Below are positions 4,997 through 22,560 of a stretch of DNA of 23,123 nt, piece by piece. Origin of the DNA: a virus; the IMG/VR virus record IMGVR_UViG_3300027710_002190, positions 1-23,123 of that record; one strand, written 5' to 3'. How positions within the stretch are numbered: the first letter of the stretch is position 1; every line of letters starts with the position of its first letter. The position numbers and the translations under genes are program-made. The notes beneath the pieces are model-generated. The model did not search any database. It was not told the DNA's origin and saw only the letters and a program-made list of their open reading frames with translations.

Positions 4997-5020
4997 AACC
5001 CACCAGTTGGTGGGTTTTTT
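4997..5020 (+). terminator. Intrinsic terminator closing the accessory patch
   Basis: A long perfect inverted repeat (AACCCACC at 4997-5004, GGTGGGTT at 5009-5016, tight AGTT loop) runs into T at 5015-5020. It is the strongest terminator of the head region and lies after the 29-codon gene. Confidence 0.85.
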
Positions 5021-5042
5021 ATTACCCAAAGAAAGGTGATGT

Positions 5043-5168
5043 ATGTGCTGTAATAAATGCTGTGCTTGTTCCTATGTTAAAAGTTCAGGCTATCAACCCA
5101 AACCAATACCAGTTTCATCTGATTTTAAAACGTCTGCAATAGTCATTTTTCCACCAAAGAAACCTTAG
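5043..5168 (+). CDS. 41-residue cysteine-rich peptide
   Basis: ATG at 5043 is preceded by AAAGG (5032-5036) with six bases between, and the frame runs 41 codons to TAG at 5166-5168. Five of the first nine residues are cysteine (MCCNKCCAC), forming a CC-x-x-CC pattern followed by CAC; the rest is unremarkable with prolines near both the middle and the end (IFPPKKP). Such density suggests metal binding or disulfide formation, but no known family is recognised. It sits between two terminators, in a unit with only itself, so it needs either read-through or its own promoter, and I see no clear one. Confidence 0.55.
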   Translation: MCCNKCCACSYVKSSGYQPKPIPVSSDFKTSAIVIFPPKKP

Positions 5169-5171
5169 TAG

Positions 5172-5194
5172 ACCACCTTCGGGTGGTTTTTTTT
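5172..5194 (+). terminator. Intrinsic terminator with UUCG loop
   Basis: ACCACC (5172-5177), TTCG tetraloop, GGTGGT (5182-5187) and a run of T at 5187-5194. The UUCG loop is unusually stable. It comes three bases after the stop of the cysteine-rich gene and 12 bases before the protease start. Confidence 0.85.
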
Positions 5195-5205
5195 GAGCGC
5201 AATTT

Positions 5206-6408
5206 ATGAAAATAATTTATCAACTCAAAGTTGGTGACTTTGCGCCAAGCGAATCCTCACGTTCATTTACCAAAGAAGGGTATTTGAAATGCGTCAACGT
5301 TCGCTTGGCCAAAGCACCTCAGGTACGCCAGTACCAGGCATATGAGTTTCCTAATCTGGATGGTTTTACACCTGATCAGACGATTAATGTCTATACGCCA
5401 GCAGACGAGCTTTTTAAGCCTGAAACTGTCCAAAGCTTCAATGGCGTAGACGTTACTGACTACCACCCACCCAAGAATGAGATTAACGCATCTAATTGGA
5501 AGGATTACCACATTGGCTATTGTGAGAACGTGCGCCAAGAGGGTGATTACCTGGTTGGGGATTTACTCATTAAGGACAAGATCAGTATCGATCTTATTCA
5601 AAGTAATGAGCGTATCGAGATGTCACTCGGTTATGCAGCAATTTTAGTTCTTGAGCAAGGTACGGCACCAGATGGTACGCCTTATCAAGCTAAGTTTATC
5701 AATTTTTACGGCGATCACATGGCGCTGGTGAAATACGGTCGCTGCGGTGGTGATTGCCGCATCGGTGACCAAAACCAAAATCATCCAAACGAGGATAAAA
5801 CAATGGAAGTATCGGTAAACGGAATGCGTTTTGACATTGGTGATAACAAAGCCCTGGCAGATGCATTAAAGATTCAAGAAGAGCAGCTGAAGAACCTTAA
5901 AGCTGCAAAATTGAAAGTAGGTGATCAACACTTTGCGATTGGGGATGAATTAACAGCTGTTCAAGCGGTTGTGGATAAACTCCATACAGACAAAGCCACA
6001 CTTGAGCAAAAAGTTGGGGATTTGGAACGAAATCAGATTACACCTGAAAAGTTGGAACAAGCGGCTACAGAACGAGCTACGGTTATTGCTGATGCTAAAG
6101 CATTGGTGCCAACGATTAAAACTGAAGGTTGCAGCTGTGAGCAGATCAAACGTGATGTGATTGCTGCTAAAGCCGGTGATGCTTTGGTAGGTGCATTATT
6201 AGGATCTGTTTCGGTAGGTGATGCCAAGCCTGAGCAGATTGATACCGCTTTCCGTGCTCTATCTGCAGTTAAGGGTACGATACCAACCAATCCTGTAGGC
6301 GATGCATTGAATCGTCAACAACACATTAAAGCAGGTGATGGTAAACCTGCCGGTGGTGAGGGTGATGAGCAAATCTATAGCAAAGAAGATGCATACAAAA
6401 CAATCTAA
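5206..6408 (+). CDS. Head maturation protease fused to scaffold, DUF2213 family
   Basis: The 400-residue protein has two parts. Residues about 15-185 match DUF2213, thought to be a capsid maturation protease: H87 in DYHPP, S140 in EMSLGY and H171 in GDHMALV are the likely catalytic residues. From about 200 on the protein is highly charged and helical, with a coiled-coil at about 215-285 and repeated VGD/AGD turns, as expected for a scaffold that fills the procapsid and is then degraded. It lies just before the cement and capsid genes, the usual place. ATG 5206 has GAG at 5195-5197. An internal start at codon 200 may give the scaffold alone. The family call is strong; the catalytic assignment is inferred from conserved-looking positions. 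Confidence 0.85.
   Translation: MKIIYQLKVGDFAPSESSRSFTKEGYLKCVNVRLAKAPQVRQYQAYEFPNLDGFTPDQTINVYTPADELFKPETVQSFNGVDVTDYHPPKNEINASNWKDYHIGYCENVRQEGDYLVGDLLIKDKISIDLIQSNERIEMSLGYAAILVLEQGTAPDGTPYQAKFINFYGDHMALVKYGRCGGDCRIGDQNQNHPNEDKTMEVSVNGMRFDIGDNKALADALKIQEEQLKNLKAAKLKVGDQHFAIGDELTAVQAVVDKLHTDKATLEQKVGDLERNQITPEKLEQAATERATVIADAKALVPTIKTEGCSCEQIKRDVIAAKAGDALVGALLGSVSVGDAKPEQIDTAFRALSAVKGTIPTNPVGDALNRQQHIKAGDGKPAGGEGDEQIYSKEDAYKTI
5803..6408 (+). CDS. Possible nested scaffold protein from an internal in-frame start
   Basis: Codon 200 of the protease gene is ATG at 5803, preceded by GAGG at 5791-5794 with eight bases between, a good ribosome site. Starting here would give a 201-residue protein containing only the charged, coiled-coil scaffold part. 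It falls at the boundary between the protease domain and the scaffold, just as Nu3 is nested in gene C of phage lambda. The ribosome site and boundary match are visible; that it is used is inference. Confidence 0.45.
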   Translation: MEVSVNGMRFDIGDNKALADALKIQEEQLKNLKAAKLKVGDQHFAIGDELTAVQAVVDKLHTDKATLEQKVGDLERNQITPEKLEQAATERATVIADAKALVPTIKTEGCSCEQIKRDVIAAKAGDALVGALLGSVSVGDAKPEQIDTAFRALSAVKGTIPTNPVGDALNRQQHIKAGDGKPAGGEGDEQIYSKEDAYKTI

Positions 6409-6421
6409 GGGGATGTAAATC

Positions 6422-6892
6422 ATGGTTAAGCAATATGATGCGGCACCAGGTATGAAGTTTCACCTCATTGGACCAGAGGATATTTTATCTCTACCAGTTG
6501 CAGGTTCAGTCTTGCTGAATGATGGTGATGTGGTGGTTCGTAGTACAGATGGTAAAACAGTATCGTCTGTAACTGGTGCGACCAATACAAAGTTTGGAAT
6601 TATCTTACGTCATGGTGTTGGTAAGTCTGGAAAAAACAGTGCAGGAAAGGAAGCCTATCAAGCAACGGATATCGCACCAGTTATGACTATAGGTTCGATT
6701 TACGTGAAGGTAACAGCACCAGTAACAGACATCAGCGCCAAGGTATATGTCAAAACCGCCAATGGCACAGTGCCAGCGCCGCTGGGTTCTTTATCTCCAA
6801 CTGCAACAGATGGTACCGAGTTACCGAACGCATCTTGGGAAACAATTTCAAATGAGCAGGGCTTAGCCGCTGTTCGATTACGTGGGGCATAA
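6422..6892 (+). CDS. Capsid cement / decoration protein
   Basis: The 156-residue protein is rich in glycine, valine and threonine and reads as beta-strands throughout, with no membrane segment. It matches my memory of the short 'structural cement' (Gp24-like) proteins that occupy this slot between DUF2213 scaffold and DUF2184 capsid genes. Such proteins bind the outside of the expanded capsid and strengthen it against internal DNA pressure. Typical segments are an early DILSLPVAGSVLLNDGDVVV and a later VMTIGSIYVKVTAPV. The purine-rich AGGGGA just ahead supports the start. The role rests on position and composition as much as on the sequence. Confidence 0.7.
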   Translation: MVKQYDAAPGMKFHLIGPEDILSLPVAGSVLLNDGDVVVRSTDGKTVSSVTGATNTKFGIILRHGVGKSGKNSAGKEAYQATDIAPVMTIGSIYVKVTAPVTDISAKVYVKTANGTVPAPLGSLSPTATDGTELPNASWETISNEQGLAAVRLRGA

Positions 6893-6897
6893 TAATT

Positions 6898-7872
6898 ATG
6901 AGTAAATTGGCGGCAATGAAGCTACGTTTAACGCCTGTAGCTCAAATGGTTCAAGCAAATATTGGCGATGCATTTAACATTGATGCATTGGCCCAACTAT
7001 TCGTTAAGTTGGAAGAATTTAACGATATGGATCCACAGCTTCAACAAGTCATGGATTATGCAAAGTACATTCCAGTTAAAGCTGTAAGTGGCGTTTACGG
7101 CGGTGGCGAAGTCTTAACCCGTAAAAAGGGTGTTGGTATCGGTAAAGAGTATTCGGGTACGGGTAATTATATTCCTGTAGCTGAAGTTGATTATGATACC
7201 GTTTCACTACCAATCAAGGTGGGTACCATCAGTTATTGGTATTCAGTGCTTGAGTTAGAAACGGCTCAGAAGCTGAATGTTACGCTAGAGGCGGATAAGG
7301 TTCAGGCGGCACGTTTAGCAGCTGAGAAGCATTTAAGCAACATTGCTTGGTATGGTAACGAGCAAACAAATATTAAAGGCTTTCTAAATCAAACAGGGGT
7401 AACAGTTGTTACCGCTCAACATAGTTGGGCTACAGCAACAATTGAAGAGGTTTTAGGTGACTTCAATTCAAGCTTGGCCGATGCTGAAGATCAGATTGAT
7501 GGTGATGTCTCAGTACAACCAGATACTTATTTGATGGCATCAAATCAATATAAGCATCTTTCAACTCGAATCGTTCCAGATTCTGGTGGTAAAACTTTCT
7601 TGAAGTTCATTGAAGAAAATAACATTTTTGCCACCCAGAATAAGCCATTAACCATCCGTGGTTTAGGGCGTTCCAATGGCAAGGGTACGGCAGGTGCTGA
7701 CCGCTCTATCATTTACCGTCGTGATCCGTCATGCATTCAAATGAAGTGTAATGATGTGACTTTCTTGGCAGCCCAACCTGTAGGACTGGATATCAAAGTA
7801 CCTGGTCACTATAAATACCAGGGCGTATGGTTGAAGCGTGTTGACTCACTTCGTTACTTGGACCACGCATAA
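6898..7872 (+). CDS. Major capsid protein, DUF2184 family
   Basis: The 324-residue protein lies after scaffold and cement genes and has the look of an HK97-fold capsid subunit of the DUF2184 family: an N-terminal arm, an early glycine-rich turn (VYGGGEVLTRKKG, about 66-78), a long helix (LEADKVQAARLAAEKHLSNIAW, about 129-151) matching the spine region, and a C-terminal beta section ending in VWLKRVDSLRYLDHA. Hundreds of copies form the head shell. The length fits the family. The ribosome site is weak (GGGG at 6884-6887, ten bases away), which is surprising for the most abundant protein; coupling to the cement gene five bases upstream may help. Confidence 0.85.
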   Translation: MSKLAAMKLRLTPVAQMVQANIGDAFNIDALAQLFVKLEEFNDMDPQLQQVMDYAKYIPVKAVSGVYGGGEVLTRKKGVGIGKEYSGTGNYIPVAEVDYDTVSLPIKVGTISYWYSVLELETAQKLNVTLEADKVQAARLAAEKHLSNIAWYGNEQTNIKGFLNQTGVTVVTAQHSWATATIEEVLGDFNSSLADAEDQIDGDVSVQPDTYLMASNQYKHLSTRIVPDSGGKTFLKFIEENNIFATQNKPLTIRGLGRSNGKGTAGADRSIIYRRDPSCIQMKCNDVTFLAAQPVGLDIKVPGHYKYQGVWLKRVDSLRYLDHA

Positions 7873-7885
7873 GGATTAAAAGAAC

Positions 7886-8284
7886 ATGAAATATTCATAT
7901 ACGTATAGCGGCTCTCAGGCCGCTTTTGTTTTTTCTGGTCTTGCTGTTTTTCCTGCAGGTGTATCAACGTTAATAGATGCTGATATCCATAAGAAGCTTC
8001 AAGACAACAAATTTGCGCAGCATTTGATTGAGTCAGGTGAAATTGATGTTCAAGAAATTGATGTGCCAAGTGAATCTAAATCAGCTGGTAAAACAGGTGG
8101 GCGCGGTACTACTGGTAAAGGAAAGCAAAATGATGCAGCCGCAGATGCTGCTAAGGCAGCGGATGATGCACAAAAAGCCGCCTTGGAGTCAATCAAAGCT
8201 GAATTAAAAGAGCTTGAGGTTACATTTAGTGATGATGAGTCACTTGAGCAGTTACAAGCTAAATTGGCTCAAGCCAGGGAGTAA
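7886..8284 (+). CDS. Small head-tail region protein with an LEM/HeH-like C-terminus
   Basis: This 132-residue protein has three parts: a small N-terminal domain (1-55, MKYSYTYSGSQAAFVF to SGEIDVQEI), a low-complexity linker rich in G, K, A and D (about 60-95), and a C-terminal helix pair (about 100-132) whose LKELEVTFSDDESLEQLQAKL resembles HeH/LEM-type helix-extended-loop-helix modules found in other phage head-region proteins. Those modules often bind DNA or other proteins. It follows the capsid gene and precedes the DUF4054 adaptor. Its first codons form a terminator-like hairpin. Its function is unknown; the module match is a resemblance only. Confidence 0.7.
   Translation: MKYSYTYSGSQAAFVFSGLAVFPAGVSTLIDADIHKKLQDNKFAQHLIESGEIDVQEIDVPSESKSAGKTGGRGTTGKGKQNDAAADAAKAADDAQKAALESIKAELKELEVTFSDDESLEQLQAKLAQARE
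7907..7934 (+). terminator. Terminator-like hairpin inside the first codons after the capsid gene
   Basis: AGCGGC (7907-7912), six-base loop, GCCGCT (7919-7924), then TTTTGTTTTTT (7924-7934). The hairpin begins 21 bases into the coding sequence and 35 bases after the capsid stop codon. It could act as an attenuator that lets capsid mRNA outnumber the downstream connector mRNA; translating ribosomes may melt it. Confidence 0.5.
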
Positions 8285-8292
8285 GGTGTCTG

Positions 8293-8676
8293 ATGGACGT
8301 ACAAACGTTTCGCCAAAAGTTTGCCCACGATACTGCATTAGTCAACATATCAGATCCTGTCATTCGGGATGCTTTGGAAGAGGCTGAGCTGGTTGTGTCA
8401 CAGCTTGAGTTTGGCGCACTTAAAGAACGTGCTGTAGGTCTGTATGCAGCACATATTCTTAAAGTTGAAACTAACAGTAAGGGCGGTGGTGCGTTTTCAA
8501 ACGCATCCAGCATGACAATTGCTGGCCAGAGTGTGAGTTATTCACGATCGCAAAAAGAAACGTTCTTTGATCAGAGCATTTATGGTCAGCGTTACCTTGC
8601 CTTAAAAAATTCCATTCCAATTGATGATAAAGGCACAAACCCTAATCGTTTAGGTGTGGGTGCCTTTGTTGTATAG
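8293..8676 (+). CDS. Head-tail adaptor, DUF4054 family
   Basis: The 127-residue protein matches DUF4054: an N-terminal DVQTFRQKF segment (2-10), a central helix pair (about 25-62, FGALKERAVGLYAAHIL) and a C-terminal stretch with GQSVSYSRSQ (about 77-86) and a TYR-rich SIYGQRYLAL (96-105). Proteins of this family attach below the portal as the first adaptor (head completion) ring, similar in place to HK97 gp6 or SPP1 gp15. It sits in the normal position between the capsid gene and the tail-completion genes, starting eight bases after the previous stop. Confidence 0.82.
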   Translation: MDVQTFRQKFAHDTALVNISDPVIRDALEEAELVVSQLEFGALKERAVGLYAAHILKVETNSKGGGAFSNASSMTIAGQSVSYSRSQKETFFDQSIYGQRYLALKNSIPIDDKGTNPNRLGVGAFVV

Positions 8677-8686
8677 GAGAAAATAC

Positions 8687-8878
8687 ATGCGTTTTAAATA
8701 TCAAGCACCAACAGGATATAAAGCAACTACCTTAGCAATTGCTGGCCAAGATCTGGAAGTTAAAAACGGCGTTGTTGAATCACAGGATGACATCATCCGA
8801 CTTCTAAAGCCTTTAGGTTTTGAGCGATTTGTTGAAGCGGTAGAAACCAAGAAATCGGCTGCAACTGCTAAAGAGTAA
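8687..8878 (+). CDS. 63-residue phage protein of the connector cluster
   Basis: ATG at 8687 follows a strong AGGAG at 8675-8679 that overlaps the preceding stop codon, so an upstream in-frame GTG at 8654 is unlikely to be the start. The protein begins MRFKYQAPTGYKATTL, has a small beta-rich domain, then a helix (DIIRLLKPLGFERFVEAV, 29-46 region) and a charged tail. Its overall plan (short beta domain, then 'phi-x-x-phi' helix) faintly recalls the N-terminal domain of the protein at 7886-8284, which would make the two distant relatives flanking the adaptor gene. No function is recognised; position suggests a role in head-tail joining. Confidence 0.65.
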   Translation: MRFKYQAPTGYKATTLAIAGQDLEVKNGVVESQDDIIRLLKPLGFERFVEAVETKKSAATAKE

Positions 8879-8884
8879 TAGTCT

Positions 8885-9367
8885 ATGAGCGATACTCGTG
8901 TTGATGTCCACGTCAATTTTGACGATATGAATGATCGCATTAGATTTGAAATAAGACGCACGATTAACGCTCTTACTTTAAGGCTGCAGCGAACAATTCA
9001 GGAAGATATGTTGAGTGGCCAGAGGCTAAAGGTTCAATCTGGTCGCTTGCGTGGATCTGTTTCATCCAAAGTGGATGAGGATAAAGACTGGATCGAGGGT
9101 ACAGTTGGGGCCGGCGGCGCATTGGTTCCATATGCTTTTGTGCATGAGTTTGGTTTAAATGGTTCTATGGGGGTGAAGGCCCACCTACGCACGATTAAGA
9201 AAGTTTTTGGTCAACCGATATCACCGACTCAGATCAATGTACGAGCGCATTCAAGAAATGTCAGATTTAGTGAATTGCGTTTTATGCGCGATTCATTGGA
9301 TATGATTGGGCGTATTGCACCACGTAATATTGATGCCGCAATTCAAAGAGGTGTAGCAAGTGGATAG
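8885..9367 (+). CDS. Tail completion protein, HK97 gp10-like
   Basis: The 160-residue protein has the HK97 gp10 family plan: an N-terminal helix (about 15-45), LKVQSGRLRGSVSSKV (48-63) and the hallmark VPYAFVHEFG (82-91). It is basic near the end. Members link the head connector to the tail tube during assembly. It follows a DUF4054 adaptor and precedes a tail terminator, exactly the HK97-type order. The stop codon overlaps the GTG start of the next gene by eight bases, suggesting coupled translation. Confidence 0.82.
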   Translation: MSDTRVDVHVNFDDMNDRIRFEIRRTINALTLRLQRTIQEDMLSGQRLKVQSGRLRGSVSSKVDEDKDWIEGTVGAGGALVPYAFVHEFGLNGSMGVKAHLRTIKKVFGQPISPTQINVRAHSRNVRFSELRFMRDSLDMIGRIAPRNIDAAIQRGVASG

Positions 9368-9803
9368 TGAAGCAATATATCAAGCATTGTTTGATCGATT
9401 GAATACTCATGTTAACGGTGTAGTAACTATCAGTCGCCGTTTACGTCATTTTAATAACGTGCAGTCTATTGAACGTCCTGCATTGTTTATTACTCAGGGC
9501 AACCAACAAGAGGGGTCGGTAAAGGGCTTAAATGCAAAGATAGAGCTTGCTGCTGAGTTGTATCTCTATATTCATGAAGCGGATAAGAATAAACCACCTT
9601 CAGCGCAATTAAATGTATTTGTCGATCGTGTGCGTGCTGCAATTAAACCTGATTTCCCTGAAATGTGTGAATACCAGACCTTAGGGGGATTGGTTGAGCA
9701 TTGTTGGATTGACGGAACAATTGAAGTATATGAAGCGGTTGAGAATATGCTTGATGACCAGGCTATTGCAATTATTCCCGTCCGTATCCTCACAACCAAT
9801 TAA
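9360..9803 (+). CDS. Tail terminator protein
   Basis: The 147-residue protein lies between the gp10-like gene and the tail tube gene, where lambda gpU-type tail terminators are found, and has the expected size and mixed alpha/beta pattern: an N-terminal helix (SEAIYQALFDRLN, 3-15), RPALFITQGNQ (39-49), an ELAAELYLYIHEADK strand and a C-terminal strand AIAIIPVRIL. Tail terminators cap the tube when it reaches its full length and offer the surface that joins the head. The GTG start at 9360 is supported by AAGAGG at 9346-9351, eight bases upstream, and it overlaps the previous gene. Identification rests largely on position. Confidence 0.72.
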   Translation: MDSEAIYQALFDRLNTHVNGVVTISRRLRHFNNVQSIERPALFITQGNQQEGSVKGLNAKIELAAELYLYIHEADKNKPPSAQLNVFVDRVRAAIKPDFPEMCEYQTLGGLVEHCWIDGTIEVYEAVENMLDDQAIAIIPVRILTTN

Positions 9804-9820
9804 ACATAATTCATTCAATG

Positions 9821-9839
9821 ACCGCCATATGGCGGTTTT
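9821..9839 (+). terminator. Weak intrinsic terminator before the tail tube gene
   Basis: ACCGCC (9821-9826), ATAT loop, GGCGGT (9831-9836), then only four T in total before a G. The stem is good but the T run is short, so partial termination is expected. Confidence 0.5.
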
Positions 9840-9862
9840 GTCATTTTTGAGAGGTCAAAATA

Positions 9863-10630
9863 ATGGCTCAGTATTTATTCGGTGCTGGCAAGATCTTTGC
9901 CACACCAATTCAAGATGTATATGGTCAGCCGATCAGTAATCCCACACCCGTTGAAGTTGGCGTCTTACAGTCTGTTTCTGTAGATATTAGCTATGACTTA
10001 AAGGAACTCTTTGGCCGTGGCCAATTTGCTGTTGATGCAGCACGTGGTAAGGGCTCAATTAAGTGTAAAGCTAGTTTTGGTCGTATCAACGGCACATTAC
10101 TTAACTCGATTTTCTTTGGCGGTGTAATTGCCGAGGGTGGGATTGAGACAATTGCGCAAACCATTAACGGTGAAATTGTTCCAGCGGGTGGCCTTCTAAC
10201 TCCTGTGGTTCCTAATGCCGGAACGTACGTTAAGGATCTAGGTGTTACAGATTCAAAAGCGGTACCAATGAAGCGTGTCGCTAGTGCACCAACAACAGGT
10301 CAATACAGTGTTGATGCTGCAACTGGTGCGTATACATTTGCTACAGCAGACGTAGGTAAAACTGTATTTATCAGCTTTAAATACTCGGCAACCGTGGCGG
10401 GAGCTAAGCAGATCACTGTATCTAACTTGGATATGGGTTATACGCCAGAGTTCGCCGTAAACCTGCAGCGTGATTATAAGGGCAAGTTTATGGGCATGGA
10501 GTTCTTCCGGAATGTCAGTAACAAACTTGGTTTTAGTTCTAAGCAGGATGATTACGACATTCCTGAGTTTGAATTTCAACCAATGGCTGATGATCTAGGC
10601 CGCGTATTCAAAGCAACATTATCGGAGTAA
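9863..10630 (+). CDS. Tail tube (major tail) protein
   Basis: The 255-residue protein starts MAQYLFGAGKIFATP and is mostly beta, as tube subunits are. Rings of it stack to form the tail tube around the tape measure. Segments such as VDISYDLKELFGRGQFAVDAARG (about 39-61) and FAVNLQRDYKGKFMGMEFF (194-212 region) fit tube proteins of this phage group. A glycine/threonine-rich middle part (about 112-180: GTYVKDLGVT, TGAYTFATADVGKTV) reads like an inserted beta domain exposed on the tube surface. It follows the tail terminator and precedes the two chaperone frames, the usual order. AGAGG at about 9850-9854 supports the start. Confidence 0.82.
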   Translation: MAQYLFGAGKIFATPIQDVYGQPISNPTPVEVGVLQSVSVDISYDLKELFGRGQFAVDAARGKGSIKCKASFGRINGTLLNSIFFGGVIAEGGIETIAQTINGEIVPAGGLLTPVVPNAGTYVKDLGVTDSKAVPMKRVASAPTTGQYSVDAATGAYTFATADVGKTVFISFKYSATVAGAKQITVSNLDMGYTPEFAVNLQRDYKGKFMGMEFFRNVSNKLGFSSKQDDYDIPEFEFQPMADDLGRVFKATLSE

Positions 10631-10636
10631 GAGCAG

Positions 10637-10948
10637 ATGCAATTTAAACAAGTTGATAATCCACGTGGTAAAGAACTCATCATAGATGGCAAGCCACTGA
10701 TGTTTGCACCATTATCATTAGGTGCGATTGAAAAGCTGCTACCTGCTTTGCAAAGCTTTGAGCCTTCAAATGTTGGATTGGTGATCGATGTAGCGCATAA
10801 ATCACTTAAACGGAATTATCCTGATATTTCCCGTGATGATGTTGCGGATCTCATCTATATGGACCAGTTAGAAGAGGTGATAGGTGCGGTAATGTCGGTA
10901 TCTGGTTTGCAAAACAAAGAGGTTAAAGGGGAACAGCAGGGGGAATAG
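10637..10948 (+). CDS. Tail assembly chaperone, short form (lambda gpG-like)
   Basis: The 103-residue protein lies between tube and tape measure genes, where siphophages keep their tail chaperones, and has a small N-terminal beta part (VDNPRGKELIIDGKPLMFAPLS) followed by helices (IEKLLPALQ; DDVADLIYMDQLEEVIGAVMSVSG). Chaperones of this kind coat the tape measure before the tube polymerises. The reading frame ends in a G-rich stretch, and the overlapping -1 frame continues for 87 more codons, so part of the ribosomes probably make a longer form. It starts six bases after the tube stop. Confidence 0.78.
   Translation: MQFKQVDNPRGKELIIDGKPLMFAPLSLGAIEKLLPALQSFEPSNVGLVIDVAHKSLKRNYPDISRDDVADLIYMDQLEEVIGAVMSVSGLQNKEVKGEQQGE
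10939..10945 (+). other. Probable -1 frameshift site between the tail chaperone frames
   Basis: The heptamer G GGG GAA is followed at once by the stop TAG (10946-10948). After a -1 slip the P-site tRNA still reads GGG and the A-site Glu tRNA reads GGA with one G-U pair. The -1 frame is open only from 10927 onward because of TAA at 10924-10926, so the shift must fall in a window of about 20 bases, in which this is the best slippery sequence. No clear downstream pseudoknot is visible. Its use is inferred from the conserved frameshift found in this position in many long-tailed phages. Confidence 0.6.
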
Positions 10949-11208
10949 ATTGGGAGGAGTTATATACACATTTGGTGCTTACATTAGGGCGTGATTATGA
11001 TTATGTTCGAGATGAGGTCGATTTAATTAGGCTCAAAGCACTAAATGAGTATCAACGAGAATACCCTCCCACAAATATTGGTGTTCAAAGGCTTTGCCGT
11101 ATATTAGAAGCATTTATTGGAATAGAAGATAATGCCAAAATATCAGATATCACAGATGATGAAGATGATCTGATGGAAGTTCTGAATAATTTCCCTCAGG
11201 GTGGTTAA
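10945..11208 (+). CDS. Tail assembly chaperone, frameshift extension (lambda GT-like)
   Basis: This frame, -1 to the gene before it, continues as IDWEELYTHLVLTLGRDYDYVRD..., a helical domain of the kind that binds the tape measure protein in GT-type chaperones. The fused product would be about 190 residues (103 plus 87). It has no good start of its own: the nearest candidates, TTG 10972 and GTG 10975, lie 12 or more bases from GGGAGGAG (10952-10959). That purine-rich site still leaves open independent initiation. Coding strength (the whole frame is open and charged residues are well spaced) and position support the T-domain role. The C-terminus is acidic (DDEDDLMEVL). Confidence 0.7.
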   Translation: MDWEELYTHLVLTLGRDYDYVRDEVDLIRLKALNEYQREYPPTNIGVQRLCRILEAFIGIEDNAKISDITDDEDDLMEVLNNFPQGG

Positions 11209-11246
11209 GGCTACCCTGAAGTTTTGTGTGACAATGCGTAATCAGT

Positions 11247-11272
11247 TTGATAAATTATTCTTACTTTATAAT
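11247..11272 (+). promoter_or_regulatory. Possible promoter for the zinc-ribbon gene
   Basis: TATAAT at 11267-11272 is a perfect -10 box. TTGATA at 11247-11252 would serve as -35, but the spacing is only 14 bases, below the optimum. Transcription would begin around 11279, leaving an almost leaderless message before ATG 11286. It is the only perfect -10 I noticed near an accessory gene. Confidence 0.25.
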
Positions 11273-11285
11273 AACCGGTGAAATC

Positions 11286-11792: not shown

Positions 11793-11812
11793 TTAATTTT
11801 TATGCAAAAAAT

Positions 11813-11834: not shown

Positions 11835-11858
11835 CATCATCATCTTAAACAAGTATAG

Positions 11859-15535: not shown

Positions 15536-16389
15536 GACAAGCATCACCACAGCTCATTGCATTACTTGACGCTGATCAGTTTCTAATGGCTGATTTGTAT
15601 ACCATTACCACAATTCAAGGTGATGCATATCGATATACCAATTATGATTTTGATCTTACAGTTGCTGGCCAACTATTTAGAGCAGATGGACCGATCATTG
15701 AACGTGAAGGCATTATTCAAAATTTAGGTATTGAAGTAGATAGTTTATCAGTCACGATTATGGTAAATGACGATACGCTGTTAAGTGATGTGCCAATTGT
15801 TCAGGCTTTCCATAATGGAATTCTAGATGGTGCACGTTTTAAGCTTGAACGTGTATTTATGAATATGAATACTCCAACTAATACCAGTGCTGGTGCAATC
15901 ACACTGTTTGAAGGAAGCTTGATTGAGCCTGAAATGGACCGCAATCAGATCCATGTCAATGCTGCATCTGATACGGATATTCTGAATGTAAAAATGCCAC
16001 GTAATCTTTATCAGCCTAGTTGTTTAAATACCTTGTTTGATAATGGTTGTGGCTTATTAAGTTCTGCTTATGTAGTTAATACGCAAATAGAGGCAAACAG
16101 CACATCAAGTCGCATCATTTGCACCTTAAACCAGCCTCAAGGTTGGTTTACTCAAGGCGTTGTGGAGTTTACTCAGGGTGTTAATCGCGGGATTAAGCGG
16201 ACAGTGCGTTTGCATGAATCGGGAGCATTGTTGCTTACCTTGCCACTTTTAGAAATGCCAGCAATTGGTGAGTCAATCAAAGTTTATCCTGGTTGTGATA
16301 AACGACTAGATACTTGCCAAAACCGCTTTACCAATAGAGCACGTTTTAGAGGTGCTCCGTTTGTTCCAATTCCAGAAACATCAATTTAA
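15532..16389 (+). CDS. Tail hub protein, DUF2163 family, probable iron-sulfur binder
   Basis: The 285-residue protein matches the DUF2163 / phage BR0599 family: MRQASPQLIALLDADQF at the start, GDAYRYTNYDFDLTVAGQLF near 30-48 and a C-terminal YPGCDKRLDTCQNRF...FRGAPFVPIP. It is the counterpart of gene transfer agent gp13 and fills the place of lambda gpL, both known to hold a 4Fe-4S cluster. Four cysteines lie at matching places: C164, C173, C255 and C262. The protein helps form the baseplate hub around which the central fiber assembles. ATG overlaps the previous gene by four bases (ATGA), a sign of coupled translation. Iron-sulfur binding is inferred from the cysteines and the relatives. Confidence 0.85.
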   Translation: MRQASPQLIALLDADQFLMADLYTITTIQGDAYRYTNYDFDLTVAGQLFRADGPIIEREGIIQNLGIEVDSLSVTIMVNDDTLLSDVPIVQAFHNGILDGARFKLERVFMNMNTPTNTSAGAITLFEGSLIEPEMDRNQIHVNAASDTDILNVKMPRNLYQPSCLNTLFDNGCGLLSSAYVVNTQIEANSTSSRIICTLNQPQGWFTQGVVEFTQGVNRGIKRTVRLHESGALLLTLPLLEMPAIGESIKVYPGCDKRLDTCQNRFTNRARFRGAPFVPIPETSI

Positions 16390-16408
16390 GAATTTTATAT
16401 TCAACAGA

Positions 16409-16438
16409 ATCCCTGCCTTAAACCGCAGGGATTTTTTT
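16409..16438 (+). terminator. Strong intrinsic terminator before the fiber gene
   Basis: ATCCCTGC (16409-16416), eight-base loop, GCAGGGAT (16425-16432), then T to 16438. It divides the hub genes from the fiber gene. Confidence 0.85.
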
Positions 16439-16453
16439 ATAGGAATTTCATAA

Positions 16454-19144
16454 ATGGCAGATTTACCTTTACCAAATGAATTAATAGGCTCATCCCTAAC
16501 GGAAAGTGCTTTTAAAACAGGTCTTGTTAAATTATTAACAGGTGTTAATCAGGTCGCTGCAGAGGGTAACCAATTCACAGTAGATCAAGATGAAAAAATT
16601 GAAATCAGCCGTTCGCAAAATAACAGTAAATTCAGTTTAGACCAAGTGCTGTTTAATGCTATGCCAACCGCGACAACTGGAACACCAACTGTAGTTGTTC
16701 GAAATGGAATTAAGCAATTACGGCTTGTAAGTGCAACGACGGGAGGTTCAATTATTGCTCAATGGGATTTTGATGTAGCTTTGTTCACACGTGAATTTGC
16801 TGCTTCGATTGTTGTTGAGGGTTTAACGTCTGGGTCGAATGGTCTTGTTGGTATTCAGCAGCTTAATAGTAGTAATGCAATTATTGGTTCTACATATGCT
16901 TTGACGAGTGTAACAACGGCAATTACAAAACAGACTTTTAAAATGCAATCTTCTGGCGTTGTTGCCAATTGCAAAACCGTACGATTGGTTGTAAACATGC
17001 AAACAACAACAACACGAGAAATGTATGTTCATAGCCCATTCATTGCGGATGGCACAAACGCTGAATTTATTGCGCCACGCGACACAAGGAATGAGAACTT
17101 GTTGTTATCTACTTTTATCAAGACTATCGGCAAGAACCAATTCAACAAAGCGTTGGCTGAGGATGGAAAACTGATTGGTTATCAAACAGGAGCAACTTCA
17201 GCTTTTGCAAATGGCATGGCTTTTGGTAAACAACCTGTTCAGGCTGGTGGTACTTATACCTTCTGGATGCCCTTAAGTACGTCATTCGCTTTTAAGCACA
17301 TCATTTACACCTATGATAAGTATGGTGTGTTTTTAGGGATGGATGCCTCTCAAGGTTCATCCAGTGAGTTGGTGAACTCAAATCCGCCTACCAGTATTAC
17401 TTATGCAGATGGCGACAAAACTGTAACTTTCACTATTCCAGATAATTCAAATATTGCATTCATTCAGATGATGATTGTGTACGCAGCGCACACAACAACT
17501 GATTTCAATAATTTAATTAATGGAATGCAATTGGAACTTGGTACTAAGCGCACAGACTTTGCAGCTTATGATCCGAATGGGCAGGAGATGCTGTATTTAA
17601 AATCTTCAGCTCTGCTTGATACACCGGAAAGTGGTGGAAGCACAACTGTAGTGGAGGCAGGGAACACATTCACAGTGTACATAGATGGCACCTATGCCTA
17701 TATCAGAACTCCGTTCAATGATACGTTGGATATGGTTCAATTGGTTCAATACGGAACAAATGCGAAGTGGTCGAATAATGTAATTAACCCTTACCAAATC
17801 AAAACCATCCCTAAATCGACAGCAAAAGAAAATCTTGTCACTGCCTACAATGCTGGAGCTTTGGTTGTGAGTCATGGGGATGATGCTGCACCGCTTCGCT
17901 ACAACGGGACTTATATCGGGGCCAATCATGGTGCTTTTGTTGTTCACGAAGTTACGCAAACAGCACACGGTAAAACATTTGCGGATGTGGGTTCCAAGTG
18001 GTCAAACGGCACTCGAGAATATACGTTAATGCGTATCGTGGATGCTAATAAACTGTGGTTCGTTTCTAACAATACGGGAACAGCTACGCAGTGGGTCTAT
18101 AATACAACCACACTTGCTTCAGGTACATTGACTCATGTTAGTGGCGCAACCAATACAGCAAACATTTCTGTGTCTGCTGATGCGATTACGCAGCTATTTA
18201 GTGCAGTTAATAATCATGTTAAGAAGTTAATAACAGATGGCTATAAAGAAATTTCTACATCTGGTTTCTATGATGTTGAGTCACTAGAGTTTATTGATTC
18301 ATACAACATCATGAATGTTCCGGCTATCGTGGCCTATGCGCAAGCAGGAGCAGGAACTGCAAGTGAGCGTGAATTTACTTCAAACGCTATTGATTGGGAT
18401 GTTCGTGTTCAGGTTGGCTACCGCTATGCGATAAACGGAAGTTTAACGATTAATACACAGCTTTATAAGAAGTCTGCAATTAACTTTGAATTTGCTGGAT
18501 TAACTCAGGCTCTACCATTGAGTTATTCTGGTAAGACGTTGCTTCAGTATGCTCCGAAGATGAATACCGTGACAGTTGGTGGAACGCCTTACAATTTATC
18601 TAACGTAATTGATGTAACTAGTGTAACCGCAGTGATTAATATGCTTAAAGCTGATTGGTCAGATGCAACCAATCCGCCGGATCGCATGGCTCAGGTCGTT
18701 AAGTCTGGGGCAACAAAAGAATATGGTCATGTTATTGGATATAGTCTGACGCGCGGTGATACCAAGCCAAGCATCAGAAAAGACACAACAGATGCAGGTT
18801 TCTTCAACGGCCCGACTAAAAAGATGTACCCTAAAGCATTGGTTACTAATCTTGACACTGTATCAAATACGATTGCATACCGTTCACTCTACAACCCAAA
18901 TCTACTACCAGAAGCAACGGTTTACACTTGGTATGAAGATAACGGTGAAATCTTTGTGATTCTTGATATTCATCAAAGTGCGCCAATGTTAAAACTTCCG
19001 CTTCCAGCAATGTTCAATGGTAAGTCTGCCGATGTAGTTGATAGTCATGCAAACTTCACACTACACAGTGAAATTGTGAGTGATGGTGGTCTACTTTGCT
19101 CGGTTGTGAATGGATATGCGACTGTAACAATTAAGTTGAGTTGA
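16454..19144 (+). CDS. Large fiber-like tail protein, probable receptor binding
   Basis: This 896-residue protein has no membrane helix and is built of beta-rich segments. Residues 1-60 (MADLPLPNELIGSSLTE...) look like an attachment domain. Two tandem jelly-roll-like modules follow (about 65-210 and 213-377), both ending in a similar 'GTxxxxF' line (DGTNAEFIAPRD; LGTKRTDFAAYD), like carbohydrate-binding modules in tail fibers. The rest (about 378-896) is of unknown fold and carries GANHG at 489-493 and a HGKTFADVGSKW segment just after. Probable role: binding of capsule or outer-membrane sugar. It sits between the hub (DUF2163) and the NlpC gene, an unusual place for a fiber. Whether the C-terminal half has enzymatic activity cannot be told; no SGNH or lyase motif is recognised. 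Confidence 0.7.
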   Translation: MADLPLPNELIGSSLTESAFKTGLVKLLTGVNQVAAEGNQFTVDQDEKIEISRSQNNSKFSLDQVLFNAMPTATTGTPTVVVRNGIKQLRLVSATTGGSIIAQWDFDVALFTREFAASIVVEGLTSGSNGLVGIQQLNSSNAIIGSTYALTSVTTAITKQTFKMQSSGVVANCKTVRLVVNMQTTTTREMYVHSPFIADGTNAEFIAPRDTRNENLLLSTFIKTIGKNQFNKALAEDGKLIGYQTGATSAFANGMAFGKQPVQAGGTYTFWMPLSTSFAFKHIIYTYDKYGVFLGMDASQGSSSELVNSNPPTSITYADGDKTVTFTIPDNSNIAFIQMMIVYAAHTTTDFNNLINGMQLELGTKRTDFAAYDPNGQEMLYLKSSALLDTPESGGSTTVVEAGNTFTVYIDGTYAYIRTPFNDTLDMVQLVQYGTNAKWSNNVINPYQIKTIPKSTAKENLVTAYNAGALVVSHGDDAAPLRYNGTYIGANHGAFVVHEVTQTAHGKTFADVGSKWSNGTREYTLMRIVDANKLWFVSNNTGTATQWVYNTTTLASGTLTHVSGATNTANISVSADAITQLFSAVNNHVKKLITDGYKEISTSGFYDVESLEFIDSYNIMNVPAIVAYAQAGAGTASEREFTSNAIDWDVRVQVGYRYAINGSLTINTQLYKKSAINFEFAGLTQALPLSYSGKTLLQYAPKMNTVTVGGTPYNLSNVIDVTSVTAVINMLKADWSDATNPPDRMAQVVKSGATKEYGHVIGYSLTRGDTKPSIRKDTTDAGFFNGPTKKMYPKALVTNLDTVSNTIAYRSLYNPNLLPEATVYTWYEDNGEIFVILDIHQSAPMLKLPLPAMFNGKSADVVDSHANFTLHSEIVSDGGLLCSVVNGYATVTIKLS

Positions 19145-19145
19145 T

Positions 19146-19565
19146 ATGAAAAATCTTGAAGCTGTCGCAGAAGCCATGACTTGGTTAGGAACACCATACC
19201 ATCATCAAGGGCGTGTCAAGGGTGTTGGTGTGGATTGTGGAACTTTACTTTGTGAAGTTTATGAAAAAGTGGGTTTAATTGACCACTTTGATCCACGACC
19301 ATATCCACCAGATTGGCACATGCATCAGATGGGGCAGCGCTATCTAGAGCATGTTCAAAGTGTGTGCTATGAAGTTGAAGAGCCGCAACCAGGTGATATT
19401 GTGCTTTATCATTTTGGCAAGTGCATCAGTCATGGTGCCATTGTTGTTGATTGGCCAACGGTCATTCATTCCTATATTCATTTAGGGGTTATCATCCAAG
19501 ATGGCACAAAAGGAAGTTTAGCCCGCCGTCGAGCGGGTTTTTTTCGCATGAAGAGGTTGAAATAA
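19146..19565 (+). CDS. NlpC/P60 family tail peptidase
   Basis: The 139-residue protein has the NlpC/P60 catalytic set: C31 in GVDCGTL, H96 in SHGAIV and H108 in VIHSYIH. Such enzymes cut peptide bonds in peptidoglycan stems; in the tail tip they open the cell wall locally during DNA delivery. It equals gene transfer agent gp14 and relates to the C-terminal half of lambda gpK, and lies directly before the gpJ-like gene, as expected. The C-terminus (ARRRAGFFRMKRLK) is basic, and the DNA for it also forms a terminator-like hairpin. TAA overlaps the next ATG (TAATG), so the two genes are coupled. The preceding fiber gene ends one base before its start. Confidence 0.88.
   Translation: MKNLEAVAEAMTWLGTPYHHQGRVKGVGVDCGTLLCEVYEKVGLIDHFDPRPYPPDWHMHQMGQRYLEHVQSVCYEVEEPQPGDIVLYHFGKCISHGAIVVDWPTVIHSYIHLGVIIQDGTKGSLARRRAGFFRMKRLK
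19522..19544 (+). terminator. Terminator-like hairpin inside the end of the NlpC gene
   Basis: CCCGC (19522-19526), six-base loop, GCGGG (19533-19537), then seven T (19538-19544). It lies wholly within codons for LARRRAGFF. Shape and T run are as good as those of the intergenic terminators. Confidence 0.5.
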
Positions 19566-22054
19566 TGGGTGGACTTTTTGGTGGTGCCACAATCAGCATG
19601 TCAGATACCCGCATTAATTCAATGCGGATCCAACAATCTGCTTATGGGCTTTGTCAGCCGTTGGTTTATGGTAAAACTCGTGTTGCTGCCAATATGTTTT
19701 GGTATGGTGATTTTAAAGCGATTGCACATACAACCACCACAAAATCAGGCGGCAAGGGAGGGAAAACAAAAACACAAAACACGACATATACATACAGTGC
19801 ATCTTTGATGATGGGGCTTTGTGAAAATCAAATTAAAGACATTGGTATGGTTTGGGTGGATAAGGACCAATTAGTTGATAAAGAGGAAGGTGGCATCACT
19901 TATCACCCGATTGATCAACTTGGGTTTGAATTGTTCGATGGTAACAACAATCCTATGTGGGGTTATATTTCAGGTGCTCACCCTGACCAAGCACTTAATT
20001 ACCCATTCCTAGGTTATGTTGCTGCAGCGAATTATGATCTTGGCGGTAGTGCCAGTTTGTCGAATCACAACTTTGAAGTGATTAGTAACATTACATTATC
20101 ATCAACCATTCATGATGCGAACCCTGCAGATGTGATTGAGGATTTTATAAAGAATCCGCGGTATGGTGCAGCGCCTAGCCTGAACATAGCCAATATGGAA
20201 GAGTTCAGAACCTATTGTCGTGCAGCTAATCTTTTAATTTCACCGGCACTAACAGAGCAAAGAGAAGCCTATGAAACCATCAATGAGATTGTTGAATCAG
20301 TCAATTGTGCGGTGGTGCCAAGTCCAGATGGTTTGAAAATAAAATCATTTGGTGATGCGGCATTAACAGGGCATGGTGTTACTTATACGCCAGATCTAAC
20401 ACCAGTTTATCATCTAATGGATGATGATTTTATAGGTGATGATGAGCCAGTTAAAGTGCGCCGTAGCCGTGATACAGATGCTTATAATCATGTGCAAATT
20501 GAGTACATCAATCGGTACAACCAATACAATACTGAAACTGTTGAAGCCAAGGATCAGGCAAATATTGAAATGTTCGGTTTGCGATCGGAAGATCCTAAAA
20601 AATTAACATTTTTTTGTGAGCCTAAAATTGCTCGTCATGTTGCACAGTTGCGTTTGCAGCGGTTACTTTACGTGCGTAATGAATATGAATTTCAGTTGGG
20701 ATGGAAATATTGCTTACTTGAGCCAATGGATATTGTCACCATTACGGACGAGTCGCTAGGCCTTGATCAATTTTCCGTTCGTATAACACGAGTTGAAGAA
20801 GATGAGGATGGTGTATTAACAATTACGGCTGAGGAACTGGCAGAGGGTTCGCGATCAGCTATTGAATATGACCTACAATCTTCAAATGGTTATCAAGGCG
20901 GTAATGAGGAACCAGGTGATGTGACAGCACCAGCAATTTTCGAACCGCCTTTAGATATTACAGATGGAAAGAATGAAGTGTGGGTGGCTATATCTGGTGG
21001 ATTGAATTGGGGTGGCTGTAATGTTTGGGCCAGTCTTGATAACACAACCTATGAAATGATTGGCACTATTTATGGTTCAGCGCGATATGGGCAGTTAGTT
21101 GCAGCAATTGATAATGATGACACTTCAATGCAAGTTCAATTGAATACAGCAAGTCAATTATTTAGCGGCACATTATTAGATGCACAAACTGACCAAACTA
21201 TATGCAAAGTTGGTGATGAGTATTTTAACTATCAAGATGCGACATTAAATGGATCTGGTCTTTATACATTGAGTAATGTGTTAAGAGGGCGTCTTAATGA
21301 TAGCCAGAACCATAATTCTGGTGAAAGGTTTATTCGTTTAGACCGAGCGATATTTAAACATACTTATAGTAGCAACCTCATTGGTAACATCATCTATTTG
21401 AAATTCACAAGCTTTAACGGTCTTGAGCAAAAAGAACAGACGCTTGATGAAGTCACTGCATATAGTTATACACTTAATGGTGGCAGGCTCTCTGGTATTG
21501 TTGGCTTGTCACTGCAGTCTCCATTTGTTGGTACGTCTTTCAAGGCACAATGGCAAGTTGCAATAGGTGCAGATGGTTATAAAGTTCAAATTTGGTCTAA
21601 CGGTGTAAAGTTACGTGAAGTTGAAACCACAAATACTGATTACAGCTATTCAATAGAAGAAGCAAAAGCAGATGGTGTACAGCGTTCATATACTATTCGT
21701 GTTGCAAGTAAGAGCGGTTCAAATTTAAGTACATTTGCAGAATTAAGTATCAGCAATGCTGTACCACCTGTGTTATCTAATATTTATACTGCGGCATCTT
21801 CAAGCTCAATTACGATTAATTGGGTGCCAAGTGATGTGCCTGATTTAAAAGATTATGCAGTTTGGTTAAGCAGTACAGCTAATTTTGATCCTACAGTTAT
21901 ACCACCATCTTGGACTGGTGCAGCATTAACAACAACGATAGGAGGCTTACAAGCAACAACACCATATTATATTCGTGTTGCGGCTAGAGATGTATGGAAA
22001 GATACAACTTGGAATTATTCAAATCAGATTACACAAAGTACTTCTGAATCTTAA
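19565..22054 (+). CDS. Central tail tip / host specificity protein, gpJ-like
   Basis: ATG 19565, with AGAGG at 19552-19556, gives 829 residues starting MGGLFGGATISMSDTRINSM, the normal start of this family; an earlier in-frame ATG at 19451 inside the NlpC gene would add 38 unrelated residues. The middle (about 180-440: ADVIEDFIKNPRYGA, YETINEIVESVNCAVV, KIARHVAQLRLQRLLY) matches the phage tail_3-type hub domain shared by lambda gpJ and the gene transfer agent gp15. The end carries two fibronectin type III domains (about 640-730 and 735-825). It forms the trimeric tip through which DNA leaves. There is no long fiber extension after the fibronectin domains, so receptor binding probably relies on the separate large fiber-like protein. 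Confidence 0.87.
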   Translation: MGGLFGGATISMSDTRINSMRIQQSAYGLCQPLVYGKTRVAANMFWYGDFKAIAHTTTTKSGGKGGKTKTQNTTYTYSASLMMGLCENQIKDIGMVWVDKDQLVDKEEGGITYHPIDQLGFELFDGNNNPMWGYISGAHPDQALNYPFLGYVAAANYDLGGSASLSNHNFEVISNITLSSTIHDANPADVIEDFIKNPRYGAAPSLNIANMEEFRTYCRAANLLISPALTEQREAYETINEIVESVNCAVVPSPDGLKIKSFGDAALTGHGVTYTPDLTPVYHLMDDDFIGDDEPVKVRRSRDTDAYNHVQIEYINRYNQYNTETVEAKDQANIEMFGLRSEDPKKLTFFCEPKIARHVAQLRLQRLLYVRNEYEFQLGWKYCLLEPMDIVTITDESLGLDQFSVRITRVEEDEDGVLTITAEELAEGSRSAIEYDLQSSNGYQGGNEEPGDVTAPAIFEPPLDITDGKNEVWVAISGGLNWGGCNVWASLDNTTYEMIGTIYGSARYGQLVAAIDNDDTSMQVQLNTASQLFSGTLLDAQTDQTICKVGDEYFNYQDATLNGSGLYTLSNVLRGRLNDSQNHNSGERFIRLDRAIFKHTYSSNLIGNIIYLKFTSFNGLEQKEQTLDEVTAYSYTLNGGRLSGIVGLSLQSPFVGTSFKAQWQVAIGADGYKVQIWSNGVKLREVETTNTDYSYSIEEAKADGVQRSYTIRVASKSGSNLSTFAELSISNAVPPVLSNIYTAASSSSITINWVPSDVPDLKDYAVWLSSTANFDPTVIPPSWTGAALTTTIGGLQATTPYYIRVAARDVWKDTTWNYSNQITQSTSES

Positions 22055-22079
22055 AACATAGATTATTTCTATTTAAATC

Positions 22080-22102
22080 ACCTCCTAATTAGGCGGTTTT
22101 TT
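22080..22102 (+). terminator. Intrinsic terminator after the tail tip gene
   Basis: ACCTCCT / AGGCGGT with one internal T-C mismatch and an AATT loop, then six T (22097-22102). It divides the tail genes from the lysis genes. Confidence 0.7.
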
Positions 22103-22123
22103 ATTATCTGGAGAAAAGAAAAT

Positions 22124-22519
22124 ATGGCAGAGCCAGTGAGTAGCGGTGCGGGTGCCGCAGTAGCAATCAAGATGTACGGCATGTGGTTTTTGATGGGAAT
22201 AGCTATCTTCTCAGCAACTCTCGTTTACTTAGTTGTCGTAATGACACGGATGCCGCGGACACGCAATGAATGGGTTGTGAGTCTAATTACGACGGTAGTT
22301 GGTAGCATTGCAGGTGGGGGCTTTTTAATTCAGCGGTTCGGTCTGCATGACTACATTACAACATGGGCAGGGTTGTGTGCGGTGGGGGGATTGTTCTTTG
22401 TTTCGGGTTTGCCATTCTGGGCAATCATCAGGTGGACATTTAACTATGTAAACGCACGTGAAAATGCAACGATTATTGAAGTGGTTGAAGAGCTAAAAGA
22501 CTTCAAAGATAACCTTTAA
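22124..22519 (+). CDS. Putative holin with three membrane helices
   Basis: The 131-residue protein has a short glycine/alanine-rich start (MAEPVSSGAGAAVA), three hydrophobic helices (about 17-40, 50-70 and 79-105) and a charged, helical C-terminal tail (NATIIEVVEELKDFKDN). It lies directly before the muramidase gene, which makes a holin the natural reading: it would form holes in the inner membrane at a set time and let the endolysin reach the cell wall. The topology and size fit class I holins. I do not recognise a specific family, so the call is from topology and position. Confidence 0.72.
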   Translation: MAEPVSSGAGAAVAIKMYGMWFLMGIAIFSATLVYLVVVMTRMPRTRNEWVVSLITTVVGSIAGGGFLIQRFGLHDYITTWAGLCAVGGLFFVSGLPFWAIIRWTFNYVNARENATIIEVVEELKDFKDNL

Positions 22520-22539
22520 CAAGCAGATCCAATCCAATG

Positions 22540-22560
22540 CCGCCGTTTGGCGGTTTTTTT
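22540..22560 (+). terminator. Intrinsic terminator between holin and endolysin genes
   Basis: CCGCC (22540-22544), GTTT loop, GGCGG (22549-22553), then seven T (22554-22560). It lies 20 bases after the holin stop. Confidence 0.82.

What the first reader, a model, noticed from the sequence alone, without database searches (positions are those of the whole stretch)
4997..22560. Many intrinsic terminators within one late transcription unit
Seen: good hairpin-plus-T structures at 4997, 5172, 11813, 11859, 16409, 22080 and 22540, a weak one at 9821 and two inside genes, all in genes reading the same way with no obvious strong promoters between. Known: lambda-type phages cross such sites with an antiterminator (Q or N type). 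Inferred: this phage either relies on processive antitermination or uses the sites as graded attenuators to set protein amounts.
Basis: partly seen in the sequence, partly recalled or inferred. Interest (0 to 1): 0.5.

Follow-up and report, generated by a model that had tools for sequence, protein, structure and literature searches.

The report
Terminator-studded late operon of Acinetobacter phage
The virus's single block of virion and lysis genes is crossed by about ten stop signals for transcription, and the relatives checked carry, just ahead of that block, a Q-type gene of the kind that lets RNA polymerase ignore such signals, so this looks like the familiar lambda-type late switch in an unusually dense and well conserved form.

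Summary
Nine strong hairpin-plus-T sites lie on the coding strand, none on the other, against 0.1 per shuffled sequence. Hairpins end 20-46 nt before the next start codon, leaving no room for separate promoters.

In 108 sequences (mostly Acinetobacter prophages and contigs) the sites stay at fixed junctions while their stems turn over; other junctions have almost none. Two lie inside genes; one of these shows clear synonymous constraint.

The record is truncated, so Q was sought in relatives. Of 28 longer records, 14 carry phrog_79 (Q-like) and the other 14 phrog_6172, never both. phrog_6172 has no assigned function, but its model matches lambda Q (Z 9.4; next unrelated 3.8). A terminator follows Q within 250 nt in 77 of 82 and 20 of 24 loci, behind a conserved promoter-like stretch.

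Strong sites concentrate in Q-dependent late operons (18 versus 1). Q antitermination is well supported but unmeasured; attenuator use is untested. HK97, N15, P22 and ES18 records annotate similar sites: a new member of a known kind.

The parts
145..167 (+).
   Evidence: d=39.9; -10.1 kcal/mol
206..23123 (+). Late operon: terS-like, terL, portal, head morphogenesis, cargo slot, protease, capsid, neck, gene 9863, tape measure, tail tip, J, holin-like gene (position only), endolysin
4997..5020 (+). Intrinsic terminator closing micro-ORF 4892-4982
   Evidence: d=43.1; -13.2
5170..5194 (+). Intrinsic terminator; T run ends 11 nt before the protease start; a site in this interval in 82 of 83 loci
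7907..7935 (+). In-gene terminator, 36 nt after the major capsid stop, inside gene 7886; a site at this junction in 88 of 88 loci (in-gene in 87, in the gap before the gene in L085); low synonymous diversity
9820..9848 (+). Terminator-like site with interrupted T run before gene 9863 (tail-tube candidate); 87 of 89 loci at d>=10, 7 of 89 at d>=25
11228..11256 (+). Promoter-like site (TG-extended, 9 of 12) ahead of the moron-like gene
   Evidence: consensus match only
11286..11792 (+). Zinc-ribbon moron-like gene
11813..11834 (+). Weak, bidirectional terminator after the moron-like gene
   Evidence: (d=0.0 on +, 3.1 on -)
11857..11882 (+). Intrinsic terminator before the tape-measure gene; a site in this interval in 68 of 79 loci
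   Evidence: (d=39.1)
16408..16438 (+). Intrinsic terminator after gene 15532; a site in this interval in 54 of 54 loci
   Evidence: d=36.5; -16.2
19520..19544 (+). In-gene terminator in the 3' end of the NlpC gene, before J; 48 of 48 loci; stem re-registered between loci
22080..22102 (+). Weak terminator-like site before the holin-like gene; 8 of 9 sequences score d>=25 at this junction, this window's copy is the one that does not
   Evidence: -5.7
22539..22560 (+). Intrinsic terminator between the holin-like gene and endolysin; 8 of 8 loci
   Evidence: (d=40.4)

Best explanation
The window is most of one late transcription unit that is read by antiterminated RNA polymerase. Transcription starts at a late promoter just downstream of a Q gene, expected 1.5-3.5 kb upstream of the terS-like gene and outside this record. 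Q loads there, and RNA polymerase then passes a promoter-proximal terminator and the serial terminators between and inside the late genes. Unmodified polymerase (stray, host-derived or from a moron promoter) is stopped at the next site, so the terminators act as Q-dependent gates that keep virion and lysis genes off in the lysogen. Residual termination may also trim amounts, most plausibly after the capsid gene. Shown here: hairpins and tails, strand and junction specificity, conservation with stem turnover, Q-type genes with promoter-like sequence and tR'-like terminator in relatives, and absence of such sites in the three early-right operons tested. Inferred: that the sites terminate, that Q overrides them, that this phage itself has Q, and the gating purpose.
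For: Nine strong + strand sites, none on -, 0.1 in shuffles. Fixed junctions in relatives: 82/83, 88/88, 87/89, 68/79, 54/54, 48/48, 8/9, 8/8 at d>=10; of the other 13 junctions, 11 have none, one has 16/89 weak sites and one 1/66. d>=25: 615 plus versus 33 minus in 2.05 Mb. Arm-swap: pairing falls from 1.00 to 0.54, 0.66 and 0.66 at three junctions and to 0.90 at a fourth. Synonymous diversity in the in-gene hairpin of 7886 is 0.069 versus 0.256, the lowest of 111 windows. Q in relatives: 14 of 28 phrog_79, the other 14 phrog_6172, none of the first 14 has phrog_6172. phrog_79 on the vB_AbaSI_5 protein, E 3.8e-37. phrog_6172 model to lambda Q, Z 9.4 and 9.2, next unrelated 3.8. Terminator within 250 nt of the Q stop in 77/82 and 20/24. 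In three phages the early-right operons up to Q have 0 sites in 18.9 kb, while the 1.6-1.7 kb after Q have 3, 5 and 4. Strong sites: 18 in 106.6 kb of six Q-dependent phages, 1 in 88.5 kb of five others.
Against: No termination or read-through was measured. Q of this very phage was not seen (record begins downstream). The phrog_79 protein is below Pfam's gathering cut-off for PF06530 (22.9 versus 26), gave no relevant PDB hit by sequence, and its model was poor with no Q hit (pLDDT 53). The phrog_6172 model is also of modest confidence (pLDDT 59) and its Foldseek E-values are not significant (best 0.027). The in-gene site in NlpC is not significantly constrained at synonymous positions (16 of 120 windows as low). 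T7 and Mu have a capsid-end hairpin without Q, so that site needs another reason. Many relatives are near-identical, so counts are not independent.
Confidence: 0.8

Rival explanations
1. Graded attenuators without processive antitermination: each site terminates part of the transcripts and so sets a falling gradient of mRNA along the operon.
For: The capsid-end hairpin is shared with T7 (annotated Tphi; d=36.0) and Mu (d=14.6), and phage 186 has an annotated partial terminator tI. PMC8022706 section 24 offers partial termination as one of two roles.
Against: Eight to ten sites in series without antitermination would leave little holin and endolysin mRNA (inference); Q-type genes are present in 28 of 28 relatives tested. 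Late operons of phages without Q have almost no strong sites (1 in 88.5 kb).
Confidence: 0.12
2. mRNA 3'-end hairpins or stabilisers: the structures protect mRNAs from exonucleases or define processed ends rather than acting on polymerase.
For: Hairpins sit at ends of capsid and tail genes; the capsid-end one is found in several unrelated phages.
Against: The T run is kept with the hairpin at each junction, which stabilisation alone does not need; such sites also occur within 250 nt of the Q stop, before any late virion gene.
Confidence: 0.07
3. Separate promoters after each terminator: several independent late transcription units.
For: One promoter-like site (11228-11256) precedes the moron-like gene.
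Against: 20-46 nt between hairpin and start codon, filled by T run and ribosome binding site; promoter-like sites below chance; 40-bp gap in L090 holding only the terminator.
Confidence: 0.03
4. Translation elements: the U-rich tail upstream of the ribosome binding site serves ribosome (S1) binding and the hairpin isolates neighbouring genes.
For: Tails lie directly before ribosome binding sites. The S1 role of U-rich leaders is recalled.
Against: In-gene site 7907 lies 22 nt after a start codon, not before one; tR'-like sites after Q are not tied to a gene start in many loci.
Confidence: 0.03

Closest known systems
Lambdoid late operons with intra-operon terminators (HK97, N15, P22, ES18, phage L)
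   Same: Late operon with putative terminators at comparable junctions: the HK97 record lists seven on the + strand, including before the protease, after the capsid gene, before the major tail gene, before the tape measure and before J; N15 stem-loops after capsid and before gene 21; P22 stem-loop after the head gene, noted as similar in location to HK97 and lambda; ES18. Phage L paper: roles not known (PMC8022706 section 24).
   Different: Host genus; more strong sites per kb than any of the six in my panel (3.6 versus 0.8-2.6 per 10 kb); two sites inside coding sequence; conservation across many relatives documented here.
Lambda Q / pR' / tR' late control
   Same: Q-type gene, promoter-like stretch, then terminator; phrog_6172 protein has a lambda-Q-like predicted fold.
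   Different: phrog_6172 shows almost no sequence similarity to lambda Q (hhalign probability 6.7%, a zinc-ribbon-like segment only).
Phage 21 Q (PF06530)
   Same: phrog_79 'anti-termination protein Q-like', E 3.8e-37; PF06530 E 8.8e-5. PF06530 is the Q21 family (PMC7171158 passage).
   Different: Below Pfam's gathering score; no structural match obtained; binding-site repeats not identified.
Tn916 terminators with canT antitermination
   Same: Terminator insulates an integrated element; processive antitermination needed for expression (PMC11658703, abstract and outline).
   Different: [quoted passage not shown] here a protein gene is implicated and the sites are spread through the operon.

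Membership tests
Q-type late antitermination (lambda/21 type) | Q gene at the end of the early-right operon, just before the late promoter | tested here: inconclusive
   Met in relatives: 28 of 28 longer records (14 phrog_79, 14 phrog_6172). The window's own Q would lie outside the truncated record.
Q-type late antitermination (lambda/21 type) | Terminator shortly downstream of the late promoter (tR') | tested here: inconclusive
   Met in relatives: 77 of 82 and 20 of 24 loci within 250 nt of the Q stop; not within the window.
Q-type late antitermination (lambda/21 type) | Promoter with -10-like pause element and Q-binding element | tested here: inconclusive
   Conserved promoter-like stretches by eye (phrog_6172 type: TTGACA, TATAAG, then a TAAAAT-like sequence in many loci); features defined in PMC6606751 passages. 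No binding-site repeats established.
Q-type late antitermination (lambda/21 type) | Read-through of terminators depends on Q | not testable with these tools
   Needs transcription assays.
Lambda Q fold (phrog_6172 proteins) | Predicted structure matches solved lambda Q | tested here: met
   Z 9.4 (162 residues, 4.3 A) and 9.2 (130 residues, 3.4 A); the top six entries are all lambda Q, next 3.8; model pLDDT 59.
Q21 family PF06530 (phrog_79 proteins) | Score at or above Pfam gathering cut-off | tested here: not met
   22.9 bits versus 26 for the vB_AbaSI_5 protein; the PHROG 79 match is strong, so it is called Q-like here but not filed under PF06530.
Intra-operon intrinsic terminators of lambdoid late operons | Hairpin plus T run between co-directional late genes, more than chance | tested here: met
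put RNA antitermination (HK022 type) | put-type RNA near the promoter | not tested
   Only a general Rfam scan of the window was run, no hits.

The most novel reading that the evidence does not exclude
Late operons of Q-dependent temperate phages are selected to be serially gated: a fixed set of terminators at set gene junctions, placed inside coding sequence where the gap is too short, stops unmodified polymerase from expressing virion and lysis genes in the lysogen, and the same gates work with two unrelated, interchangeable Q proteins, one of them (PHROG 6172) an unrecognised lambda-Q-fold family.
Probability: 0.45. Interest if true: 0.6.

Novelty: new member of a known kind. Interest (0 to 1): 0.4.

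Why it matters
Intra-operon terminators in lambdoid late operons are noted in the literature with roles stated as unknown (PMC8022706 section 24). This family gives a cleaner case: eight fixed junctions, stems that change while pairing is kept, two in-gene sites, and a Q versus non-Q contrast. That makes the two proposed roles (gating of unmodified polymerase versus setting amounts) directly testable. It also suggests a function for PHROG 6172, listed as unknown.

Tried and rejected
Separate promoters: rejected on spacing and promoter counts. Terminators brought in by cargo genes only: rejected for the protease junction because L090 keeps the terminator with no cargo. Column-by-column pair counting for the NlpC site: dropped because loci use two registers of the stem; I used distinct arms and an arm-swap instead. 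Only called hairpins enter that test, so 'own pairing 1.00' holds by construction and only the swapped value is informative. Q21 identity of phrog_79 by structure: model too poor, no useful match. Sequence searches of PDB with both Q types: nothing relevant. NCBIfam gave nothing useful for either Q type. Rfam: no hits. phrog_127 on the 14 phrog_6172 records: 8 of 14, but that family also rang in 11 of 14 control genomes, so it was not used as evidence. Caller sensitivity: lambda's Q-S stretch gave only d=0.4 and -1.0 hits, so the caller is conservative for lambda-type sites.

Literature: paper searches. In their listings I saw nothing on late-operon terminators or a lambda-type Q in Acinetobacter phages (119 returned 0 papers); most subscription journals are not held, so this is no proof of absence. 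Read: PMC8022706 (passages and section 24), PMC7171158, PMC6606751, PMC2629481 and PMC7354433 (passages), PMC11658703 (abstract and outline). The HK97/HK022 genome paper is recalled to discuss such terminators but was not seen.

Counts: the 28 records were chosen by me from the 80 loci, mostly for contig length. One search used 108 sequences (107 loci plus the window; L108 is probably unrelated); a locus entered a junction only if both genes were found and lay within 4 kb. In the Q/non-Q comparison the labels are recalled; 5W, vB_AbaSI_5 and the window were left out of the totals; phages within a group are related, so p=1.7e-4 is only indicative.

Full report
What the window is. It is a 23,123-base virus record holding the late genes of an Acinetobacter siphophage, in one direction from a terS-like gene to an endolysin. 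The closest named complete phages are 5W and vB_AbaSI_5. The record starts just upstream of the terS-like gene, so early genes and the late promoter are missing.

The observation. A terminator caller using hairpin energy and T-run score finds nine strong + strand sites, none on the other strand, and 0.1 per shuffled sequence over 20 shuffles. The tool's looser scan gave an excess in the first half (21 versus 8.4) and none in the second (9 versus 8.2), because it counts many weak sites on both strands. Individual folds agree: 9 of 11 sites fold at -10 kcal/mol or better; 11813 (-8.9) and 22080 (-5.7) are weaker. From hairpin end to the next start codon there are 20-46 nt, taken up by the T run and ribosome binding site.

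Conservation. I mapped the window's proteins onto 107 fetched loci by tblastn and scored each junction. Sites with d>=10 were found at headmorph-protease in 82 of 83, capsid-7886 in 88 of 88, 9360-9863 in 87 of 89, 10972-tape measure in 68 of 79, 15532-NlpC interval in 54 of 54, NlpC-J in 48 of 48, J-holin in 8 of 9 and holin-lysin in 8 of 8. The remaining 13 junctions had none, except 16 of 89 weak sites at 8293-8654 and 1 of 66 after the tape measure. The 9360-9863 site is usually just below 25 (7 of 89 reach it). Over all 108 sequences there are 615 strong plus-strand and 33 minus-strand sites. Stems differ widely between loci while the T run is kept. Swapping arms between loci lowers pairing to 0.54-0.66 at three junctions and to 0.90 at the fourth, where only two arm pairs exist. 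Of 43 loci spanning terS to J, each has 6-9 sites at d>=20. Many loci are close relatives, so these are not independent counts.

Two in-gene sites. The site after the capsid gene lies inside gene 7886 in 87 of 88 loci; in L085 it lies in the gap before that gene instead. Over 69 distinct sequences its codons show synonymous diversity 0.069 against 0.256 elsewhere, the lowest of 111 windows. The site in the 3' end of NlpC is not significantly constrained by that measure (0.279 versus 0.403; 16 of 120 windows as low), but the stem exists in two registers and one locus has an A-T for G-C exchange.

No room for promoters. Promoter-like matches are fewer than in shuffles. In L090 the head-morphogenesis stop and protease start are 40 bp apart with only a terminator between. 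One promoter-like site precedes the moron-like zinc-ribbon gene, which is followed by two terminators.

The antiterminator. In vB_AbaSI_5 a protein encoded upstream of the late genes matches PHROG 79, 'anti-termination protein Q-like', at 3.8e-37 and Pfam PF06530 below its cut-off. PF06530 is the phage 21 Q family (PMC7171158, passage). Of 28 longer relatives, 14 have it; the other 14 all have PHROG 6172 instead, and none of the first 14 has PHROG 6172. PHROG 6172 has no listed function and only weak similarity to Q-like families. Its AlphaFold2 model (pLDDT 59) has lambda Q as its top six Foldseek hits, though none below E 0.001, and VIA-align Z 9.4 and 9.2 to lambda Q with the next unrelated chain at 3.8. 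The phrog_79 model was too poor to test.

Late promoter region. Downstream of the Q stop there is a conserved promoter-like stretch and then a terminator within 250 nt in 77 of 82 phrog_79 loci and 20 of 24 phrog_6172 loci. The order Q, promoter with pause element, terminator is the lambda and 21 arrangement (PMC6606751, passages). In three phages the early-right operon up to Q has no site in 18.9 kb, and the 1.6-1.7 kb after Q have 3, 5 and 4: terminators become dense where Q would load. The early-left operons of two of these phages have 2 each.

Controls. In late operons of lambda, HK97, HK022, ES18, N15 and P22 (Q-dependent; label recalled) there are 18 strong coding-strand sites in 106.6 kb and 3 on the other strand. 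In P2, 186, Mu, D3112 and T7 (no Q; recalled) there is 1 in 88.5 kb, T7's, and 0 on the other strand (p about 1.7e-4 if independent). HK97, N15, P22 and ES18 records already annotate such sites, and the phage L paper says their roles are not known, proposing partial termination or stopping of spurious transcription (PMC8022706, section 24 read in full). Tn916 is the nearest experimental parallel that I saw (PMC11658703, abstract and outline).

Conclusion. The late operon is very likely Q-antiterminated, with serial terminators acting as gates against unmodified polymerase; an added level-setting role is possible and best motivated for the capsid-end site. This is a new member of a known kind, with unusually good comparative evidence. 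Termination, read-through and the gating purpose remain inferences.

Noticed in passing
L194:12595-13371, L196:13501-14256, L203:11797-12528: PHROG 6172, listed as unknown function, has a lambda-Q-like predicted fold and sits at the Q position.
   Followed up: yes
L003:43207, L194:14163, L196:14669: A terminator-like hairpin inside or near a small ORF (PHROG 6740 in L003) between Q and the terS region recurs in three phages.
   Followed up: partly
window 4892-4982 and 5043-5168: Two micro-ORFs (about 29 and 41 codons, the second Cys-rich), each closed by a terminator, in a variable cargo slot.
   Followed up: no
window 16454-19144: 896-aa tail-region protein with no PHROG match and hits in only 3 of 108 sequences, the window included.
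   Followed up: no
MZ514874.1 (hit H45): A phrog_79-type Q relative is annotated as RNA polymerase sigma factor in a phage record.
   Followed up: no
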